Source of the DNA: Methanocorpusculum sp.
GTDB taxonomy: Archaea; Halobacteriota; Methanomicrobia; Methanomicrobiales; Methanocorpusculaceae
NCBI GenBank assembly: GCA_017408885.1
Contig: JAFQTT010000011.1
Location: 1 to 64,000 of the forward strand
Direction of reading: 5' to 3'
DNA length: 64,000 nt
Shown here: positions 3,473 through 45,895 of the stretch, in pieces
Numbering within the stretch: position 1 is the first letter of the stretch
How the letters are laid out: each line of letters starts with the position of its first letter
Notes under the pieces: model-generated
Database searches by the model: none
What the model was told of the DNA's origin: nothing
What the model saw: only the letters and a program-made list of their open reading frames with translations
Made by a program: the position numbers and the translations under genes

Positions 3473-3861
3473 CACAGAAAACAAAAGAAGAGGGGGCGCA
3501 CATGACGACCAAATCAATGCAGATGTCCCGCTCTTCTATTACAGATTCGCACGCAGAGACCAAAAAAGTAACCCGCACAGAGGAACAAAGTGACAGAGAG
3601 CGGCTCATGGTTGACTGCCGCATAAGTGCAGATGCAAGTATCATAAACTTCATCTCGCACACCGGAATCCAGAGCCAGATGGGCATGCTCATGGAAACAA
3701 CAGCAAAAGCCGCAAGGAGCATACTGCTTCTCGCAGCAGACCGTGTTGGGCTGAGCACAGAAGTGTTCGAAAACGCCTGCATGGAAATCCATCTCCGATT
3801 TGCAGAACCTGAAACACTCTACCGGATATGCCAAATGGAGGAAGAAGATGGCAAAAACTGA
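3469..3861 (+). CDS. Hypothetical protein of the accessory island
   Basis: 130 aa with no family I recognise. A polar N-terminal 45 residues is followed by a helical core (ISADASIINFISHTGIQSQM, then AARSILLLAADRVGLS). It shares an ATGA overlap with the gene before and overlaps the HNH gene after it by 14 bp. A second start, ATG 3502, has a good ribosome site (GAGGGGG, 5 nt spacing) and may be the real one, which would give 119 aa. Nothing suggests an enzyme; a structural or regulatory role is possible. Confidence 0.5.
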   Translation: MTQKTKEEGAHMTTKSMQMSRSSITDSHAETKKVTRTEEQSDRERLMVDCRISADASIINFISHTGIQSQMGMLMETTAKAARSILLLAADRVGLSTEVFENACMEIHLRFAEPETLYRICQMEEEDGKN

Positions 3862-5791: not shown

Positions 5792-5912
5792 TCTCAAAAA
5801 AAGAATTGGCGAATTACTCGCCGAACCACTGGTTAGAGACCTCCTCTACTGGCTCTTATACATCTGCCTGATTATAGAAGAATATCTAATCAGACTGCTG
5901 ATTGAAGAATAA
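5784..5912 (+). CDS. Possible small hydrophobic peptide
   Basis: An open frame overlapping the end of the preceding gene encodes LLYWLLYICLIIEEYLIRLL near its C-terminus, one likely membrane helix with acidic ends. There is no ATG; CTG 5784 is the only upstream start seen. A small hairpin GGCGA/TCGCC (5808-5820) lies within it. It could equally be the untranslated tail of the preceding transcript. Confidence 0.2.
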   Translation: MHNLKKRIGELLAEPLVRDLLYWLLYICLIIEEYLIRLLIEE

Positions 5913-5935
5913 AAAAGGGAAATATATTGAAGAGT

Positions 5936-8306: not shown

Positions 8307-8888
8307 ATGCTGCAGGAAGAAGATAATGTCGTTGTCATAGAGCAGGGTTCGGTTCAGGCTCAAAAGATTGCAAAAGCTATGGCATCACCTACCGCCGGTG
8401 ATTTATTCAATACTTTATCTGACGGTCCACTCACAGCTACCGCTTTAGCCGAGCAGACCGGTTTTCCGCTTACGACGGTGAAGTATCATCTAAATAACCT
8501 GCTTGATGCGGATTTAATCGAGGTTGTGGACTCACGCTGGAGTGAGAAGGGGCGTGAGATGAAAATATATGGAGTAAAAGATCAGGTTGTGGTTTTAGCT
8601 CCAAGAAAACGTCCGGATGTAAGGCAGATTGTGGAACGATACGGAGTTATTGCAGGGGCTGTCACTATAGGCTGTGCTGTGCTTTTGGCGATTCCAAATA
8701 TGCTGTCCAGATATTTCCCTACGCAAAATCCAGGTGTGTCACTTGCCCGCGAGATTACAGAGGTCGCGCCGACATTTGATCTGATGGGCTTTATGCAGAA
8801 TGCAGTGCTGATTTTCTTCTGCGGGGCGATTCTTGTTCTTGCAGGAATGATGTTTTACGAGATTTACAGGACAAAGAAGCAGGATTAA
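8307..8888 (+). CDS. ArsR-like winged helix protein with C-terminal membrane segments
   Basis: 193 aa. Residues 20-90 form an ArsR-type winged helix (SPTAGDLFNTLSDGPLTATA, FPLTTVKYHLNNLLDADLIE). Two hydrophobic segments follow, about 108-130 (GVIAGAVTIGCAVLLAI) and 160-182 (AVLIFFCGAILVLAGMMF), so the DNA-binding head is tethered to the membrane. No metal-binding cysteines are seen. It probably senses something at the membrane; partner genes are not linked. Confidence 0.75.
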   Translation: MLQEEDNVVVIEQGSVQAQKIAKAMASPTAGDLFNTLSDGPLTATALAEQTGFPLTTVKYHLNNLLDADLIEVVDSRWSEKGREMKIYGVKDQVVVLAPRKRPDVRQIVERYGVIAGAVTIGCAVLLAIPNMLSRYFPTQNPGVSLAREITEVAPTFDLMGFMQNAVLIFFCGAILVLAGMMFYEIYRTKKQD

Positions 8889-35280: not shown

Positions 35281-37985
35281 AAGCTGTAGAAGAACTTAGA
35301 AAAACCCTGCATCCAAAACTTCAGGCTGTTCTTGAGAAACGCGGGTTTGATGATTTTTCAGAAATTCAGCTAAGAGCAATCCCGGAGCTGATTAAGGGAG
35401 GAAACGCGATTTTAATCGCCCCCACCGGAAGCGGCAAGACTGAAAGCGCTTTGCTTCCTGTATTTCACAACATGCTCTCCAAAGCGCATCCAGAAGGCTT
35501 TACCGCACTATATATCACACCTCTTCGTTCCCTTAACCGCGATATGATGAATCGCCTTGAGTGGTGGGGAAAAGAGCTTGGGATTCGGATTGCTGTCCGC
35601 CACGGAGATACAACACAGAATGATCGACGCAAACAGGCAGCAAACCCGCCTGATCTTTTGATAACCACACCTGAAAGTATTCAGGCAATGTTCATGGGCA
35701 AAGTGCTTCGAAAACACCTTGCAGGCGTTCGCTATGTAATTGTTGACGAAATTCATGAACTCGCAGCATCCAAACGAGGATGCCAGCTCTCCGTTGCCTT
35801 AGAGCGGATTGTCGAACTCGCCGGAGATTTCCAGAGGATTGGAATCTCTGCAACCGTTGGAAATCCTGAGCTTGTAGGAAAGTTCCTCTGTGGAAAACGT
35901 CCATGCCAGGTCGTGGCTGTCCCTGTTGCAAAAACCCTTGACCTATCAGTTCGCTTCGCTGGAGAAGGATTTGGCGAACAGGTAAAACTTATCGAGAAGT
36001 GCATCGACTCGCACACTTCATCTCTGGTTTTCACAAACACCAGAAGCGTTGCTGAAGCTATTGGAAATGCTCTTGTTTCCCGCGAAGACATTGATGTGCA
36101 TCACGGCTCTCTTTCCCGAGAGGTGAGGGTGGATGCGGAAGACCGTTTTAGAAATGGGCTGACACGCGGAATGATTTGTACAAGTTCCATGGAGCTTGGA
36201 ATTGACATTGGTCAAATCGACCATGTTGTGCAGTTCAATTCACCAAGAGAAGTTGCACGCCTTATGCAGAGAACAGGTCGAGCCGGACACCGAATTGGTG
36301 CGGCATCCAAAGGAATGATTCTTGCAACCGGATTTGACGATATTTTAGAGTCAATGGTTGTGGTCCGCCTTGCAACTGAAAATCGCCCGGAGAATGTCAG
36401 GCCGCACATTAATCCGGCTGATGTCATTGCAAATCAGATTGCAGCACTCGCGGTTGAACGCGGTGAAATTTCAATCGAGAACATCGAAAAGATTTTTGAT
36501 CGATGTTATTGCTTTGAAAATGCAGGAGAACTAATCCGTGATGTCATAGCCCAGATGGAGAAGCACTATCTTATAAGAACTGAAGACGGGATGGTGATAA
36601 CTAAAGCAAGAGCACGCAAATACCTCTCACTGAATCTCTCAATGATTGCGGATGAGAAGAAGTGTGTCATCTTCGATGTCATCTCCAGAAAGCCAGTTGG
36701 AACGCTTGATGAGTCTTTTGTTATCAGCTGGATTAGTTCTGGAGCAGTCTTTGTTGCCCGCGGGCAGGTGTGGCGTGTTTTAGAGCTTGAGGAAAACAAG
36801 GTCATGGTCGAGCCTGCAAAGAATGCGAAAGGAGAACTTCCGTCATGGGAAGGAGAACAGATTCCTGTTCCATTCACTGTAGCTATGGAAGTTGGAGCAC
36901 TTCGAAGAACACAGGACTTTGCAAGTTACCGTTCTGATGAGCGGTCTGTTACCTTCGCACAGAAAACGCTTGATGAGATGAAGAAGAACCGCTCGATTAC
37001 CGCGACTGACAAGCTTATTGTCTTAGAAGATGCTGATGAAGGTGTTGTGGTGAATCTATGTGCGGGACATAAAGTAAACGAGGCAATTGGGCGTGTATTG
37101 TCGATTCTAATCTCAGCACGCTATGGCTCGGCTGTCGGAATTGAGACGAATGCGTACCGTTTCTATCTCAGACTTCCAAAGCATCTGGCAGCACCTGATG
37201 TAGAAGAGATTTTCCACACTTTAGAGCCTGAACATGTAGAGGGAATATTACAGCTTGCGTTAAAGAAGACGTCTCTTTACAAATGGCGTCTGGTGCAGGC
37301 GGCAAAGAAGTTCGGGGCGATTGATGCGGATGCTGATTATGAGAAAATCAGTATGAACCGCTTACTGGAATTATTCGATGGTACAATTGTTGAGCGCGAG
37401 GCGTTCCGCGAGTTGTTCTTCTCAAATATGGACGTGGAAGGTGCAAAGGAGATTGTCCGCCGCCTCAAAAATCATGAGATGGAGACGAGAACAAGCCGCT
37501 TATCGGTAATTGGCGCTCAGGGACTTTTCTCTGAGCGTGATATGGTAACACCCCCTGGAGAAGACCAGGCAATTATCGAGTCAGTTAAGCACAGGATTGC
37601 AGAGCAGGATGTGGTTCTTGCATGTATGCACTGTAGAAAGTGGAAGTCGAGAACAAAGACAGGACGGGTTGCAGAACAGCCTGTGTGTCCTGTCTGCGGT
37701 GCCAAACTAATTGCTGTTCTAAAGCCTTATGAAGAACCTATGTTTTTGGCTTTGAAGAAAAAGACGCTGACAACTGAAGAAAAGGAAGCAGAAAAACGAA
37801 TGATGAAGAATGCAAATATGGTTCTCTCAAGCGGTCGTGATGCTGTGATTGCTTTGTCAGGCAGAGGTGTCGGTCCTGATTCAGCAGCACGTATCTTAGC
37901 TACATTTGCGAAGGGAGACAACTTCTACCGCGAGATTTTGAAAGCTGAGAGAAGATTTGTACAGACACACCAATATTGGGGTTAA
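35277..37985 (+). CDS. Lhr-type DEAD/H-box helicase
   Basis: 902 aa. Motif I APTGSGKTES (about 45-54), motif II DEIHE, motif III ISATVGN, motif VI QRTGRAGHR; then the Lhr winged-helix and core C-terminal domains. Near the end a zinc-like pair CMHCRKW ... CPVCGAK. It unwinds RNA:DNA or DNA forks in repair. The final codons lie within a tandemly repeated 84-bp unit, but the reading frame ends in the first copy (THQYWG then TAA), so the protein appears intact. Confidence 0.9.
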   Translation: MKAVEELRKTLHPKLQAVLEKRGFDDFSEIQLRAIPELIKGGNAILIAPTGSGKTESALLPVFHNMLSKAHPEGFTALYITPLRSLNRDMMNRLEWWGKELGIRIAVRHGDTTQNDRRKQAANPPDLLITTPESIQAMFMGKVLRKHLAGVRYVIVDEIHELAASKRGCQLSVALERIVELAGDFQRIGISATVGNPELVGKFLCGKRPCQVVAVPVAKTLDLSVRFAGEGFGEQVKLIEKCIDSHTSSLVFTNTRSVAEAIGNALVSREDIDVHHGSLSREVRVDAEDRFRNGLTRGMICTSSMELGIDIGQIDHVVQFNSPREVARLMQRTGRAGHRIGAASKGMILATGFDDILESMVVVRLATENRPENVRPHINPADVIANQIAALAVERGEISIENIEKIFDRCYCFENAGELIRDVIAQMEKHYLIRTEDGMVITKARARKYLSLNLSMIADEKKCVIFDVISRKPVGTLDESFVISWISSGAVFVARGQVWRVLELEENKVMVEPAKNAKGELPSWEGEQIPVPFTVAMEVGALRRTQDFASYRSDERSVTFAQKTLDEMKKNRSITATDKLIVLEDADEGVVVNLCAGHKVNEAIGRVLSILISARYGSAVGIETNAYRFYLRLPKHLAAPDVEEIFHTLEPEHVEGILQLALKKTSLYKWRLVQAAKKFGAIDADADYEKISMNRLLELFDGTIVEREAFRELFFSNMDVEGAKEIVRRLKNHEMETRTSRLSVIGAQGLFSERDMVTPPGEDQAIIESVKHRIAEQDVVLACMHCRKWKSRTKTGRVAEQPVCPVCGAKLIAVLKPYEEPMFLALKKKTLTTEEKEAEKRMMKNANMVLSSGRDAVIALSGRGVGPDSAARILATFAKGDNFYREILKAERRFVQTHQYWG

Positions 37986-38237
37986 GCCGAAGGCGCATGC
38001 CCCCAAGGCGTCGCGGGCATACGGGCGGGTGAGAGAAGATTTGTACAGACACACCAATATTGGGGTTAAGCCGAAGGCGCATACCCCCAAGGCGTCGCGG
38101 GCATACGGGCGGGTGAGAGAAGATTTGTACAGACACACCAGTATTGGGGTTAAGCCGAAGGTGCATGCCCCCAAGGCGTCGCGGGCATACGGGCGGGTGA
38201 GAGAAGATTTGTACAGACACACCAGTATTGGGGTTAA
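37946..38237. repeat. 84-bp tandem repeat, 3 full copies plus a partial fourth
   Basis: Units begin at 37946, 38030, 38114 and 38198, with a period of exactly 84 bp and only a few substitutions (for example CAATATT/CAGTATT). Each unit holds the last 13 codons and stop of the helicase gene (about 40 bp) followed by about 44 bp of GC-rich DNA with an ATGCCC/GGGCAT stem. The last partial copy carries the TTAA that is the stop of the convergent ATPase gene. It looks like expansion of a helicase/ATPase junction. Confidence 0.9.
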
Positions 38238-38953
38238 TCCTCAAACAATTCATCAAACAGCTTTTCTCTGTTTTCGAGAAACATCTTTGTTATCTGGTAG
38301 CTTTCGGTCTCTTCGTATGATACAGGAGATACTTCACCATTCGAGAATGAATAGATGTCAGCACCAGGCAGTCCAAGCAAGATTGGCGAATGCGTTGCGA
38401 TAATAAACTGCGAACCTCTTTTTGCCATCTCGGAGATTATCAGCAGAAGGCTTAACTGCCGCTGCGGAGACAGGGCAGCTTCTGGTTCGTCCATGATGTA
38501 GATTCCGCGGCGGTTTTCGAACTCCTGGAAGAAGGAGAGGAAACTTTCTCCGTGCGACTGAGTATGCAGGCGCTTTCCGCCGTATTTTGTGCCGTACTGT
38601 TCGGCGGCGGTTGCGACATTGAAGAAGCTTTCTGCGCGGAAGAAATATCCTGCCTGAGGACGGTGAATTCCTTTACTGATGTGAAGAGCTGACGCCAGGT
38701 CATGTGTTTCAGCATAGGTACTGAAGTTATAGTTCAGCGTTCCGCCTTCTGCGTTGAATCCGTAAGCGACTGCCAACGCTTCAATCAGAGTGGACTTTCC
38801 TGAGCCGTTTTCGCCGACAAAGAAGGTCACCGGATTTTCAAACCGGAAGGTATCCAGACTGCGGACGGAAGGTATGCTGTGCAGAAAGGAATACTCCGGT
38901 ACTTTGTCCCAGTTGATTTTGAACTCACGAATGAATAGACTGGAGAGTTCCAT
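38234..38953 (-). CDS. AAA/ABC-type ATPase (COG3910)
   Basis: 239 aa. Walker A GENGSGKST (about 46-54), a signature-like HTQSHGESFLSFFQ, Walker B IYIMDEPEAALSPQRQ and switch histidine in IATHSPILLG. Stand-alone ATPases of this type are related to overcoming-lysogenisation and SMC-like proteins; the function is unknown, although defence or toxin-antitoxin links have been proposed for relatives. It starts 1 nt after the PPOX gene stop. Its stop codon lies in the last tandem repeat copy. Confidence 0.85.
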   Translation of the reverse strand: MELSSLFIREFKINWDKVPEYSFLHSIPSVRSLDTFRFENPVTFFVGENGSGKSTLIEALAVAYGFNAEGGTLNYNFSTYAETHDLASALHISKGIHRPQAGYFFRAESFFNVATAAEQYGTKYGGKRLHTQSHGESFLSFFQEFENRRGIYIMDEPEAALSPQRQLSLLLIISEMAKRGSQFIIATHSPILLGLPGADIYSFSNGEVSPVSYEETESYQITKMFLENREKLFDELFED

Positions 38954-42896: not shown

Positions 42897-43784
42897 CTAC
42901 TCTGACAATGAGTAGTAAACCGTGTTTTCTCTTTTTTCAGATAAGACAATTCCATCCTCTTCAAGCTTTGCAAGATGCCAGCGAAGAGATGATGCAGATA
43001 TTCCTGTTTCTGCTTCGAGTTCAGATAATATCATTGGTTTTTTCTCAAGCGCGGACATAATTGCCGCCGGTTTTTCTTTTGCGCGGGCGGCGTTGATTAT
43101 GTCTGTCTCTGCCAAAGATTCATCTGCCGGGTAGTATCTGACAGTTTTGTGATATGGTGTTTCGCGTATTTTGTTTTCGCTTACGAGTTTTTGTATGTGG
43201 TGTACCGTTGAGTTTCTTGAGTATCCGGTATTTTTCACGACATCTGCTTCACTGCATCCGGGATGTTCTTCGATGTAATTCTGAATATGTATTCTCCTTG
43301 GTGCGGGAGATACAGAGCGGACAAAGTTTACTGATAAGAGTACAGCGCCTGAGAGAATTGGAACCCATCCAAATATTTTCAGAGCCGCCGCAACAATTTC
43401 AGCCGTACTCATAGCATAACATGCATCAACTTTGCCAAGAGAATATGTTTCACCGTTAAATGACAGAATCCGCCCTCCATATTCATTGAAGATATAATCA
43501 GCTTCATCTCCGGAGATTCCACCGTCAGGAATAGTATCAGAGAAATAAACCTTCAACATACCTCCGCCAGCTTCCAGAATTGATAGAAATTCAGGGCAGT
43601 CCGCTAAGTCCTCAGCCGTAAGATAGAGTATCTCGCTATCTTCTTCTGGTTCGGACGGCATTACATGTATTAGAGAATCTGGATATGGGACAACAACGAA
43701 CTCGCTGACAAAGCCCCCTGACAGGATAAGGAGAATGCCTGCCAAAATAATAAAGAGTGGAATTATTATCTTTTTCTTATCCAT
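42897..43784 (-). CDS. Membrane-anchored sensor with two winged-helix domains
   Basis: 295 aa. Helix 1 at 7-30, an external domain (about 31-120) with FLSILEAGGGMLKVYFSD and GRILSFNGETYSLG, helix 2 (about 128-150), then two winged helices: YIEEHPGCSEADVVKNTGYS and SELEAETGISASSLRWHLAK. The external domain resembles the secreted protein encoded at 43842, and the cytoplasmic half is paralogous to the product at 44298. It probably controls genes directly from the membrane. A TATA box (complement of about 43807-43816) puts it at a leaderless start, with ATTGGGCA just beyond. Confidence 0.8.
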   Translation of the reverse strand: MDKKKIIIPLFIILAGILLILSGGFVSEFVVVPYPDSLIHVMPSEPEEDSEILYLTAEDLADCPEFLSILEAGGGMLKVYFSDTIPDGGISGDEADYIFNEYGGRILSFNGETYSLGKVDACYAMSTAEIVAAALKIFGWVPILSGAVLLSVNFVRSVSPAPRRIHIQNYIEEHPGCSEADVVKNTGYSRNSTVHHIQKLVSENKIRETPYHKTVRYYPADESLAETDIINAARAKEKPAAIMSALEKKPMILSELEAETGISASSLRWHLAKLEEDGIVLSEKRENTVYYSLSE

Positions 43785-43818
43785 GAATGTCTATTTAGTC
43801 ATAAGACAATATAAAAAA

Positions 43819-43826
43819 ATTGGGCA
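43819..43826 (-). promoter_or_regulatory. Shared promoter element, copy 1 (one mismatch)
   Basis: ATTGGGCA on the plus strand (TGCCCAAT on the gene strand) directly upstream of the TATA box of the regulator at 43784. It differs by one base from the ATTGGACA in the three neighbouring promoters. Confidence 0.45.
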
Positions 43827-43841
43827 TTTTCCAACACCCGC

Positions 43842-44243
43842 TTAAGGCATTGGAGGTGCCAGACCAATAGGCCCTAAAGAAACATGGTACAGCTTTCCGT
43901 CAAACGAGAAGTAAGTCTCCCAATCAAAGCCCGAAATGGAATAATACTCCTCAGGCGTCATCTCACCGCTTGGATGGATGTTGAGATAAGTATCTCCGTT
44001 TTCAAGAGCTCCAATTAAAACCGGATACTTCTCGCGGTAGGATTCCGTTAATGGAATTACCTCAAAGGAGCTATCCGGATTATCTACGGCATCTATTTTC
44101 AGGAAAGATATTGGATATGGATACTCATCTCCATCAGAGTCTGGTGTGTCCGGAGTCTTCCAGAAATCGTTTGCGCCTGCAAAAATCGCAAACCCGACGC
44201 AGCAGAGAAGAACTATCAGAATTATTGGGATTATTTTTTTCAT
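43842..44243 (-). CDS. Secreted protein sharing the regulator's sensor domain
   Basis: 133 aa with a signal peptide or anchor (IIPIILIVLLCCVGFAIFAG, residues 4-23). The body has YPVLIGALENGDTYLNIHPS, TPEEYYSISGFDWETY and FSFDGKLYHVSLGP, which aligns by eye with the external domain of the neighbouring regulator (EFLSILEAGGGMLKVYFSD, then NGETYSLG). It is probably a ligand or competitor for that sensor. TATA (complement of 44264-44273) is centred about 26 nt before the ATG. No known family. Confidence 0.7.
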   Translation of the reverse strand: MKKIIPIILIVLLCCVGFAIFAGANDFWKTPDTPDSDGDEYPYPISFLKIDAVDNPDSSFEVIPLTESYREKYPVLIGALENGDTYLNIHPSGEMTPEEYYSISGFDWETYFSFDGKLYHVSLGPIGLAPPMP

Positions 44244-44276
44244 AACTGAATATTCACCCTGTCTTAATATAAAGAG

Positions 44277-44284
44277 ATTGGACA
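44277..44284 (-). promoter_or_regulatory. Shared promoter element, copy 2
   Basis: ATTGGACA (plus strand) 3 nt beyond the TATA box of the secreted-protein gene, in the place of the BRE. The flanking GGAAACA partly matches the longer conserved block at copies 3 and 4. Confidence 0.55.
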
Positions 44285-44297
44285 GGAAACAACATAA

Positions 44298-44993
44298 TCA
44301 CCTGAGTACTGAATATCTGACAAGCTTTCCACTCTTTTCTGAAACGATAACACCATCCTCTTCCATCCGTGCAAGGTGCCAGCGAAGAGATGAAACAGAA
44401 AGACCAGTCTTTTCTAAAAGTTCAGACATGGTAAGAGCGTCTTTGCCAAGAGCTTCCAGAATGATTGCCGGTTTTTCTTTTGAGGTTACGGCATTGAGCG
44501 TGTCCTCTTCTGCTGTCTGAATAACCGGCGGATAATAGCGGACAGTATTTCTATACGGCTTTTCGGCAACGCGGGTCTCTCGAACAAGCCGTTTCAGATG
44601 ATGTGCAGTAGAACTCCTTGAGTATCCAAGATATTTTACAATATCAGATTCACTGCTCCCCGGATGCTCTTCAACATACATCTGAATCTGCATTGCCCGC
44701 GATTCAGGAGCAGTTGAACTGACAGAACGGGCAAAATTAATCACAATCAGAATACATCCTGCGGCTGTCAAAATCAGACCGGTTGGTCCTGTAAAGTCAG
44801 AAATATCATTTCCCGGAGGGGCAGGAGGTGCTTCGGGATTTATTGGCTGATTGGGGTCAGCCGGTGTCGGGTCAACAGGAGTAGGATCAATTTGGGCAGG
44901 GCCATCAGTACTTATTCCTGACAAGGCAGTGATTAGAAGAAGCCCAATTCCGCATATCAAAAGAAACACAGAGACCATCTTTCGTATTTTCAT
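44298..44993 (-). CDS. Membrane-anchored regulator with two winged-helix domains, paralogue
   Basis: 231 aa from ATG 44993 (TATA complement of 45014-45023, about 26 nt upstream). Helix 1 (8-26), a short proline-rich external loop (DPTPVDPTPADPNQP) in place of a folded sensor domain, helix 2 (about 68-88), then MYVEEHPGSSESDIVKYLGY and LLEKTGLSVSSLRWHLARME. The cytoplasmic half is closely similar to that of the 42897 product. It may respond through a partner, as it has no sensor domain of its own. Confidence 0.8.
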   Translation of the reverse strand: MKIRKMVSVFLLICGIGLLLITALSGISTDGPAQIDPTPVDPTPADPNQPINPEAPPAPPGNDISDFTGPTGLILTAAGCILIVINFARSVSSTAPESRAMQIQMYVEEHPGSSESDIVKYLGYSRSSTAHHLKRLVRETRVAEKPYRNTVRYYPPVIQTAEEDTLNAVTSKEKPAIILEALGKDALTMSELLEKTGLSVSSLRWHLARMEEDGVIVSEKSGKLVRYSVLR

Positions 44994-45026
44994 AATTGAA
45001 ATTTTACCGAGGTATAATATAAATTG

Positions 45027-45048
45027 ATTGGACAAAAAACAGCAGAAC
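45027..45048 (-). promoter_or_regulatory. Shared promoter element, copy 3 (long form)
   Basis: Begins ATTGGACA and continues AAAAACAGCAGAAC. Bases 45028-45048 are identical to 45875-45895. It sits 3 nt upstream of the TATA box of the paralogous regulator. Confidence 0.6.
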
Positions 45049-45085
45049 AGACAGTAAGGTTTGTTAAAAAAGAAGAATGGTGATA

Positions 45086-45841
45086 TTAGTATACAATTGG
45101 ATGCTCTAACATCCAGATATATTCCTCAAATCTTTCCTGACTAAGGTTTAGTACACGTGCAATTTCAGTATGATATCCAAGCATGTCCTCAACAAAGATA
45201 TACTCCCAGTGTTCATGGAGACCATCTCTGCGTTCTGCATCTTTGAGATATCCAGTTTTTATATCGTCCGCGATTTCTAAAATCTCTTCATTGGTCAATC
45301 CAAGAGAATATATTCTATTTACATTTCCCAAGTCCACTTCCACAACAACAATGCCGGGTTCTAATGGAATTCTTGGCGCACCATGTTCTTCAAAATGATC
45401 TGGCGGTGCAATCAGGTCTTCCACAATAGTCTCATGTAATTCCTGATCAATATTCAGCATCCGGCTTACTTCAGTTTGGAATGCAACAATGTCATCGATT
45501 CTGACCTCTGTATCACTTCGTTTTGCATCTTTGAGATAAACAGTATCGAGTTCTTCTGCATAGAATGAAATCTCTTCTTCAGTTAATCCAAGATTATAAT
45601 TTACATTTAAATCAGACAGGAATGTCTCCACACTTGAAATAATTTTGTAATATGTTGGCGGGGCATCCGGGTCAATCTGTTCTAAATCGAAGTAATACAG
45701 AGAATCTTCATCAATTGGAGGTGGTGTCATAGGTGGAATAGGTGTTTGAGGCTGATTTCCAGAATCCGGATTCTGCACACATCCCGCAGAAAGAACAACT
45801 GCGAGAATAAGCATGATTAGAACAACAAACAACTTTCTCAT
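45086..45841 (-). CDS. Lipoprotein with an internal duplication
   Basis: 251 aa. Lipobox VVLSAGC (Cys 21) followed by a Pro/Thr linker. Two similar halves: YNLGLTEEEISFYAEELDTV and YSLGLTNEEILEIADDIKTG, each followed by YLKDAxRxD and a helix with TEVSRMLNI or TEIARVLNL. It is probably anchored at the outer face of the membrane. Its promoter (TATA complement of about 45860-45868) carries the same long element as the regulator at 44298, so they are likely controlled together. No known family. Confidence 0.7.
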   Translation of the reverse strand: MRKLFVVLIMLILAVVLSAGCVQNPDSGNQPQTPIPPMTPPPIDEDSLYYFDLEQIDPDAPPTYYKIISSVETFLSDLNVNYNLGLTEEEISFYAEELDTVYLKDAKRSDTEVRIDDIVAFQTEVSRMLNIDQELHETIVEDLIAPPDHFEEHGAPRIPLEPGIVVVEVDLGNVNRIYSLGLTNEEILEIADDIKTGYLKDAERRDGLHEHWEYIFVEDMLGYHTEIARVLNLSQERFEEYIWMLEHPIVY

Positions 45842-45873
45842 GATAGAAAATCTGCATGAGATATATTAAGGAT

Positions 45874-45895
45874 ATTGGACAAAAAACAGCAGAAC
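45874..45895 (-). promoter_or_regulatory. Shared promoter element, copy 4 (long form)
   Basis: A 21-bp identity with 45028-45048, starting ATTGGACA, just upstream of the TATA box of the lipoprotein gene. Confidence 0.6.

What the first reader, a model, noticed from the sequence alone, without database searches (positions are those of the whole stretch)
42897..45895. Four-gene membrane signalling unit with a shared promoter element
Two paralogous membrane-anchored double winged-helix regulators flank a secreted protein whose body aligns with the external domain of one regulator. A lipoprotein with an internal duplication lies next to them. All four promoters show ATTGG(A/G)CA directly upstream of TATA (43819, 44277, 45027, 45874), and two copies are identical over 21 bp. 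This implies self- and cross-regulation and a ligand or competitor relation between the secreted protein and the sensor. I know of no described system of this form.
Basis: partly seen in the sequence, partly recalled or inferred. Interest (0 to 1): 0.75.

Follow-up and report, generated by a model that had tools for sequence, protein, structure and literature searches.

The report
Archaeal membrane-regulator regulon with shared operator
In a gut-type methane-making archaeon, a family of membrane-anchored gene switches appears to control its own genes and a set of cell-surface proteins, some of which carry the same outer sensing domain as the switches; the shared DNA signal is real, but what is sensed remains unknown.

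Summary
The window comes from a Methanocorpusculum genome. Two paralogous membrane-anchored double winged-helix regulators (P0001, P0003), a one-helix-anchored protein (P0002) related to the TM1 plus outer-domain half of P0001, and an internally duplicated lipoprotein (P0004) each have TGYCCAAT directly upstream of TATA, 40-42 nt before ATG. The 8-mer count alone is not unusual in the window. The promoter-positioned form occurs 13 times in this genome, 53 times in six genomes including it, 13 times in the other 27, and its reversed control 0 times in all 33. Two patterns together give 16 such promoters here, before regulators, surface proteins and lipoproteins (one leads only a 28-aa ORF). All eight outer-domain genes found here lie in element-led units. 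An unselected second half-site exactly 10 bp upstream makes a one-turn direct repeat, which suits two tandem winged helices. Best reading: a self- and cross-activating regulon of transmembrane regulators, functionally resembling bacterial co-component systems. P0001's sensor half was exchanged or diverged sharply between close relatives (27% identity) while its DNA-binding half stayed at 94%. DNA binding, direction of regulation, signal and the role of P0002 are inferred.

The parts
42897..43784 (-). P0001: TM helix, outer sensor domain (about residues 31-130), TM helix, two tandem winged helices
   Evidence: Pfam PF24266 and HTH_5 above cut-off; AF2 model shows TM1, ectodomain, TM2 and two wHTH modules
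43310..43784 (-). exchangeable sensor half of P0001
   Evidence: 27% protein identity to the G015 orthologue in TM1 and ectodomain against 94% for the wHTH half; DNA identity falls to 59-75% only over the 100-bp bins 43300-43799
43842..44243 (-). P0002: N-terminal TM helix (4-24) plus the same outer domain, no DNA-binding part
44298..44993 (-). P0003: paralogous regulator with a short proline-rich outer loop instead of the sensor domain. The TTG extension to 45035 runs over the operator and is not taken as the start
45086..45841 (-). P0004: lipoprotein-like protein with an internal duplication
   Evidence: paralogues at other element-led loci
43808..43836 (-). operator and TATA of P0001: TGTTG-N5-TGCCCAAT-N3-TTTATATT
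44266..44294 (-). operator and TATA of P0002: TGTTG-N5-TGTCCAAT-N3-TTTATATT
45016..45044 (-). operator and TATA of P0003: TGCTG-N5-TGTCCAAT-N3-TTTATATT
45863..45891 (-). operator and TATA of P0004: TGCTG-N5-TGTCCAAT-N3-CTTAATAT

Best explanation
P0001 and P0003 belong to a Methanocorpusculum family of transmembrane one-component regulators. Each regulator's two cytoplasmic winged helices bind two TGY half-sites one helical turn apart (TGYKR-N5-TGYYCAAT), just upstream of BRE/TATA of leaderless-type promoters. Bound there they recruit TFB/TBP and activate their own genes, each other's genes and a regulon of surface proteins and lipoproteins. The outer domain is a protein-interaction or ligand-sensing module. 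Stand-alone, membrane-anchored copies of the same domain (P0002 and others) act as co-sensors or modulators of the regulators, and the sensor half can be exchanged while operator recognition is kept. Shown: gene anatomy, the element, its spacing, recurrence and clade restriction, the half-site repeat, domain homology, and divergence of the sensor half. Inferred: that the regulators bind the element, activation rather than repression, exchange rather than fast divergence of the sensor, and the role of P0002.
For: Element with TATA and ATG at fixed distance: 13 in G000, 53 in six genomes including it, 13 in the other 27, reversed control 0 in all 33. Those six are the top six of 33 by best E-value of a P0001 match. 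In G000, 13 of 17 strict sites lie 40-42 nt before an ATG, all before membrane or secreted proteins, including 4 of 8 double-wHTH genes. All 8 ectodomain genes found in G000 are in element-led units, 6 directly and 2 as the next gene. A half-site not used in selection: G at -9 in 25 of 29 sites; TG at -10 in 13 of 24, YGYB in 15 of 24 against a permutation maximum of 6. A different regulator clade has its own 10-bp repeat TTGATCACACTTGATTTAAT: 8 of 9 hits with up to 2 mismatches lie before its own genes. Only one TFB gene was found. Activator sites in archaea typically lie upstream of BRE (passages of PMC5512572 and PMC4158304).
Against: No binding or expression data. Three of eight double-wHTH genes in G000 lack either element form at the promoter position (one has TGTTCAAT at -79 of its ORF start). 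Class A is not one clade on the tree: it needs 5 changes, and one class-A row (L117, G021) lies apart. The P0004 orthologue in G021 lacks the element. Most ectodomain genes read outside the six genomes show no TGYYCAAT. Four of the 17 strict hits do not fit a promoter. The operator's AAT may overlap BRE, so repression is possible. Paralogous promoters may share the element partly by descent, and related genomes are not independent.
Confidence: 0.6

Rival explanations
1. The regulators are autorepressors: binding over the BRE-proximal site blocks TFB, and an outer signal relieves repression of the surface-protein regulon.
For: The second half-site TGYYCAAT reaches to within 3 bp of the TATA box and probably overlaps BRE; archaeal repressors can block TFB/TBP (PMC5512572 passage).
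Against: The upstream half-site is conserved one turn further from TATA, a position typical of activators.
Confidence: 0.25
2. The element is an unusual core-promoter sequence read by basal factors (an alternative TFB) rather than by these regulators.
For: It sits at or next to the BRE position directly before TATA.
Against: Only one TFB gene was found in a 90.5% complete genome; the element has a second half-site upstream and is largely confined to genomes with this regulator clade.
Confidence: 0.07
3. The shared element is only a relic of recent gene and promoter duplication with no regulatory meaning.
For: The 22-bp identity of the P0003 and P0004 promoters could be a local duplication: in G015 no P0004 gene lies before P0003.
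Against: The non-orthologous ectodomain sequences aligned are only 16-36% identical to P0002, yet in G000 six of eight such genes keep element, spacing and TATA and the other two follow element-led genes. P0002 keeps TGTCCAAT in the four genomes that have P0003 and not in the two that lack P0001 and P0003 at the locus.
Confidence: 0.08
4. P0002 is a ligand or competitor (decoy) for the P0001 sensor, rather than a co-sensor.
For: P0002 resembles the TM1 plus sensor half of P0001, has the same operator, and other stand-alone copies occur in the regulon and, in G017, next to a regulator with the same domain.
Against: It has an N-terminal TM helix and may stay anchored. G020 and G022 keep P0002 without P0001 or P0003 at the locus, and G021 keeps it beside P0003 without P0001 (assemblies 83%, 69% and 92% complete), so it is not tied to P0001. 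In this species the two domains have diverged.
Confidence: 0.3

Closest known systems
Transmembrane transcription regulators (TTRs), Demey et al. 2023, PMC10269533 (abstract and passages seen)
   Same: One polypeptide with TM region and DNA-binding domain; the paper reports enrichment in Methanomicrobia
   Different: Here two tandem wHTH after the second TM, a shared operator, a regulon and an exchangeable outer domain; the passages seen describe no such archaeal system
Co-component systems VtrA/VtrC and ToxR/ToxS, Kinch et al. 2022, PMC9214523 (passages seen)
   Same: Membrane-tethered regulator with a neighbouring outer partner that has an N-terminal TM helix or signal; fast-evolving outer domains
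   Different: Separate promoters instead of an overlapping operon, partner carries the same domain as the regulator, archaeal double wHTH, no shown heterodimer, no shown lipocalin-like fold
ArnR/ArnR1 of Sulfolobus, PMC6396743 (passages seen)
   Same: Archaeal membrane-bound paralogous one-component regulators of surface-structure genes
   Different: N-terminal HTH, HAMP, sensor domain and two C-terminal TMs, inverted-repeat boxes TCGAC-N5-GTCGA; different architecture
EarA of Methanococcus, PMC5512572 (passages seen), and TFB-RF1 of Pyrococcus, PMC5937170 (search listing only; also described in the PMC5512572 passages)
   Same: EarA sites immediately upstream of BRE/TATA; TFB-RF1 recruits TFB to a weak BRE, and the same is suggested for EarA
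   Different: Not described as TM-sensor regulators in the passages seen
PF24266 HTH_HVO_0163_N
   Same: First winged helix of P0001 and P0003 scores above the Pfam cut-off
   Different: Family name only; a search for the locus name gave one paper, seen in the listing only

Membership tests
Transmembrane transcription regulators | predicted TM region and DNA-binding domain in one protein | tested here: met
   HTH families above cut-off; hydrophobic segments starting at 3 and 134 in P0001, 3 and 69 in P0003; AF2 of P0001
Co-component signal transduction systems | membrane-tethered transcription factor | tested here: met
Co-component signal transduction systems | neighbouring gene with N-terminal TM or signal and an outer domain | tested here: met
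   P0002, TM helix 4-24 plus ectodomain
Co-component signal transduction systems | overlapping or co-translated two-gene operon with partner downstream | tested here: not met
   P0001, P0002 and P0003 do not overlap and each has its own element and TATA
Co-component signal transduction systems | lipocalin-like or VtrA-like fold of outer domains | tested here: inconclusive
Co-component signal transduction systems | obligate outer-domain heterodimer | not testable with these tools
   no complex prediction on hand
PF24266 HTH_HVO_0163_N | score above Pfam gathering cut-off of 31 bits | tested here: met
   38.6 and 42.8 bits
MsvR | NCBIfam equivalog cut-off of 220 bits | tested here: not met
   27.1 and 33.8 bits
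Archaeal activators acting upstream of BRE (EarA, TFB-RF1 type) | binding site immediately upstream of BRE/TATA | tested here: inconclusive
   The putative site has that position in 29 non-redundant promoters, but binding is not shown
Archaeal activators acting upstream of BRE (EarA, TFB-RF1 type) | shown recruitment of TBP or TFB | not testable with these tools
   needs in vitro transcription

The most novel reading that the evidence does not exclude
A self-propagating sensor-copy regulon: a methanogen genus carries membrane regulators whose outer sensor was captured from stand-alone surface proteins, keeps sensor and surface copies under one direct-repeat operator, and exchanges sensor halves between regulators while output stays fixed. 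Surface repertoire and its sensing would thus co-evolve as one expandable family.
Probability: 0.35. Interest if true: 0.78.

Novelty: new variant of a known kind. Interest (0 to 1): 0.62.

Why it matters
To my knowledge few archaeal membrane-bound regulators have known operators or targets (recalled, not searched as such). Here a predicted operator, its 10-bp direct-repeat geometry, a candidate regulon and natural variants (sensor exchange or divergence, cassette loss) come together, so the system can be tested with one DAP-seq or RNA-seq experiment. It would show how a genus described in print as ancestrally host-associated (title of PMC10035134) may control its surface proteins.

Tried and rejected

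A general rule that every double-wHTH gene has the element was rejected: in the tree of 85 rows 58 were labelled with none of the three forms. By eye, not tested, many of these seem to follow a secreted-protein gene. At least one of the 58, G021_L114, was mislabelled because of an over-long ORF, and one, G026_L121, has the variant TGACCAAT at 41. A general rule that a regulator's sensor resembles a non-regulator protein was not borne out: of 90 regulators 83 had enough N-terminal sequence to be tested; 6 hit stand-alone proteins and 18 hit only one ORF of L222, which overlaps a regulator ORF and is apparently part of it. Outside the genus no fusion of ectodomain and double wHTH was seen in 16 fetched loci chosen from the longer hit list; two of these loci hold a separate double-wHTH gene.

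Papers: passages found by terms in PMC10269533, PMC6396743, PMC9214523, PMC5512572, PMC4158304 and PMC10035134; search listings only for all others. Searches in which a description of this system could have appeared; I saw none in the rows listed. The listings are capped and the library lacks most subscription papers.
Full report
WHAT IS THERE. The window (contig C11 of a 1.55-Mb, 13-contig genome) is archaeal: the cassette lies between the RNA polymerase A'' gene and CTP synthase (names by recognition). Relatives of the same genus are named Methanocorpusculum: contigs of the same length as G015:C19, G015:C24 and G023:C113 are titled Methanocorpusculum parvum SIG11 and Methanocorpusculum sp. 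RGIG8706 from a water deer colon. Gene order on the minus strand is rpoA2, P0004, P0003, P0002, P0001, pyrG, guaA.

THE PROTEINS. P0001 and P0003 are 52% identical over the second TM helix and two winged helices, with PF24266 and other HTH families above cut-off. An AF2 model of P0001 (6 sequences, mean pLDDT 78, pTM 0.38) shows TM1, an alpha/beta outer domain, TM2 and two complete winged helices. P0003 has a proline-rich loop in place of the outer domain. P0002 has a TM helix at 4-24 and an outer domain (mean pLDDT 74.6, pTM 0.56; blocks of ten between residues 51 and 120 average 73-93). Both models have the same main order, strand-strand-helix-strand-helix-strand-strand; the P0001 model has an extra short helix and an extra short strand. 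The models were not superposed. Profile comparison of six P0002 orthologues with three P0001 sensor halves gives probability 99.4, E 1e-21, aligned from the first residue. P0004 has an internal repeat and a lipobox-like LSAGC (motif recalled).

THE ELEMENT. In gene sense the element is TGYYCAAT, 3 bp, then a TATA box, with ATG at 40-42. If the TATA box is centred at -26/27 (PMC5512572 passage), transcription would start at or near the ATG, a leaderless-type promoter (inference). In the window alone the 8-mer is at chance. Genome-wide TGYYCAATN4TTWWWW gives 17 hits and 0 controls in G000; over 33 genomes of the family my sum of the table is 97 hits and 19 controls. Of the 17, 13 have an ATG at 40-42 and all 13 lead membrane, secreted or lipoprotein genes; the other four do not fit (start codon at +82, +190 and +57, the last for a 47-aa ORF, and one with no ORF). 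With a TATA-like stretch and the ATG spacing built in, G000 has 13, G015 7, G020 6, G021 14, G023 9, G026 4, the other 27 genomes 13, control 0. In G000 this set has three sites that the first lacks and lacks three that the first has, so 16 in all; one of the 16 leads a 28-aa ORF. These six genomes are also the six with the lowest best E-values for P0001. Genomes rich in other double-wHTH matches (G012 15, G016 15, G017 13, G032 14, fragments included) have 0 such sites, though under looser rules one promoter-like site was seen in G016 before a lipoprotein-like gene. In the fetched loci, which were chosen for family members or sites, 48 of 54 element-led genes have a hydrophobic N-terminus, against 17 of 62 non-overlapping ORFs of the window.

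GEOMETRY. In 29 non-redundant sites chosen only on TGYYCAAT, AT-rich TATA, ATG spacing and an ORF of 60 aa, position -9 is G in 25 and the stretch -10 to -6 reads TGYKR. In a stricter set of 24, TG stands at -10 in 13; the next best shift has 6; the YGYB count of 15 compares with at most 6 in 2000 shuffles. All four window copies have it: TGTTG, TGTTG, TGCTG, TGCTG. A 10-bp direct repeat is what two tandem winged helices on one face of the helix would read (inference). Two other regulator groups point the same way. TGCTTARA stands before six regulators at 45; in the four of these promoters printed TGTTA or TGCTA lies 10 bp upstream, a fifth (L219) reads AACTA there, and the sixth was not read. 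TTGATCACAC-TTGATTTAAT stands before the long regulators of G012, G016, G017, G030 and G032: 8 of 9 hits with up to 2 mismatches in 33 genomes lie before those genes; the ninth, in G029, was not examined. On a tree of 85 winged-helix sequences the operator labels need 8 changes against a shuffled mean of 25.7; class C is one clade with full support, class A needs 5 changes and class B 2. Near copies and shared descent inflate such figures.

THE REGULON. G000 has eight double-wHTH genes: four with TGYYCAAT (P0001, P0003, C3:344102, C9:7241), one with TGCTTAAA (C2), three with neither at the promoter position (C3, C7, C9:160489). It has eight ectodomain genes at E <= 0.001: six directly behind the element, two as next genes (C3:245641 starts 9 bp after the stop codon of an element-led lipoprotein gene; C4:19529 directly follows an element-led gene). 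Two P0004-like genes at C3 belong here too: the 222-aa paralogue, and the 145-aa ectodomain protein, which resembles P0004 only at its N-terminus. In other genomes of the genus most ectodomain genes that I read have no TGYYCAAT, so the link of domain and element is a feature of this clade.

NATURAL VARIANTS. P0003-P0002-P0001 is conserved in G015 and G023 (in G023 P0001 is cut by a contig end); G021 has P0003-P0002. P0002 has TGTCCAAT in the four genomes with P0003, and a changed sequence in the two that lack P0001 and P0003 at the locus: G020, where rpoA2-P0002-pyrG is contiguous and P0002 is 95% identical, reads ATTCCAAT, and G022 reads TTTTCCAAG. G020 is 83% and G022 69% complete, and in G020 the deletion junction itself may have removed part of the operator, so this is suggestive only. 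Between G000 and G015 P0001 is 94% identical in the winged-helix part (129 of 137) but 27% in the outer domain (27 of 100) and TM1 (8 of 30); DNA identity falls to 59-75% in the bins 43300-43799, against 78-97% in the other full bins of the region. The G015 and G023 sensors are orthologous (62 of 93) and near P0002 (36 of 85 for the best pair); the G000 sensor scores best with the sensor of the 453/456-aa regulator (27 of 70 in G023, 26 of 70 in its own genome and in G015). This fits exchange of the sensor half; fast divergence is not excluded.

ORIGIN OF THE OUTER DOMAIN. It has no fitting Pfam model, and no clear PDB match by sequence or fold. It occurs in 48 of 150 genomes sampled from the order, at E <= 1e-6. 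In 16 loci fetched from outside the genus it was in proteins without a double wHTH, most with a hydrophobic N-terminal stretch by eye. Capture of a surface domain as sensor is therefore the simpler reading. A second case: the 456-aa regulator also shares a 146-aa stretch with the N-terminal part of a reprolysin-like metallopeptidase (32%, E 1e-14).

MECHANISM. Activators in archaea typically bind upstream of BRE and help recruit TBP or TFB; EarA sites lie immediately upstream of BRE in a methanogen (passages). I therefore favour activation with positive feedback over repression, roughly 65 to 35. P0002 could be partner, modulator or competitor; its retention without a P0001 gene in three genome assemblies (G020, G021, G022) argues against a pure P0001 decoy.

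KNOWN OR NEW. It is a member of the broad class of transmembrane transcription regulators. It works like a co-component system but fails the operon criterion and its fold relation is open. I found no description of this regulon in the listings of nine searches; in a Methanocorpusculum genome paper the words transcription and regulator do not occur in the main text held.

Noticed in passing
L103 3145-4512 (G000 C3) and L116 6914-8269 (G021): A 456-aa membrane regulator shares a 146-aa outer stretch (32%, E 1e-14) with the N-terminal part of a reprolysin-like metallopeptidase.
   Followed up: partly
G012, G016, G017, G030, G032 upstream of the long regulator genes (L128, L129, L131, L132, L133): A second operator class, TTGATCACACTTGATTTAAT, almost exclusive to these genes: 8 of 9 hits with up to 2 mismatches in 33 genomes.
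   Followed up: yes
window 37896-38403: Overlapping ORFs with a repeated unit (YRHTNIGVKPKAHAPKASRAYGRVREDL and its other frames) that look like a tandem DNA repeat; a similar stretch lies near C4:19950.
   Followed up: no
window about 8307-8885, + strand: Another winged-helix protein with a hydrophobic C-terminal part, weakly matching the family profile (E 5e-7).
   Followed up: no
L167 about 5805-5931 (G000 C4:19804): An element-led 28-aa ORF, MNKKILYLILGAAIFFIILEVILYLQYI, perhaps the remnant of a regulon gene or a small TM peptide.
   Followed up: partly
L108 about 3500-3600 (G015): The sequence before P0003 looks like the 3' end of rpoA2 although the upstream neighbour is an antiporter-like gene, perhaps a rearrangement scar.
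   Followed up: no
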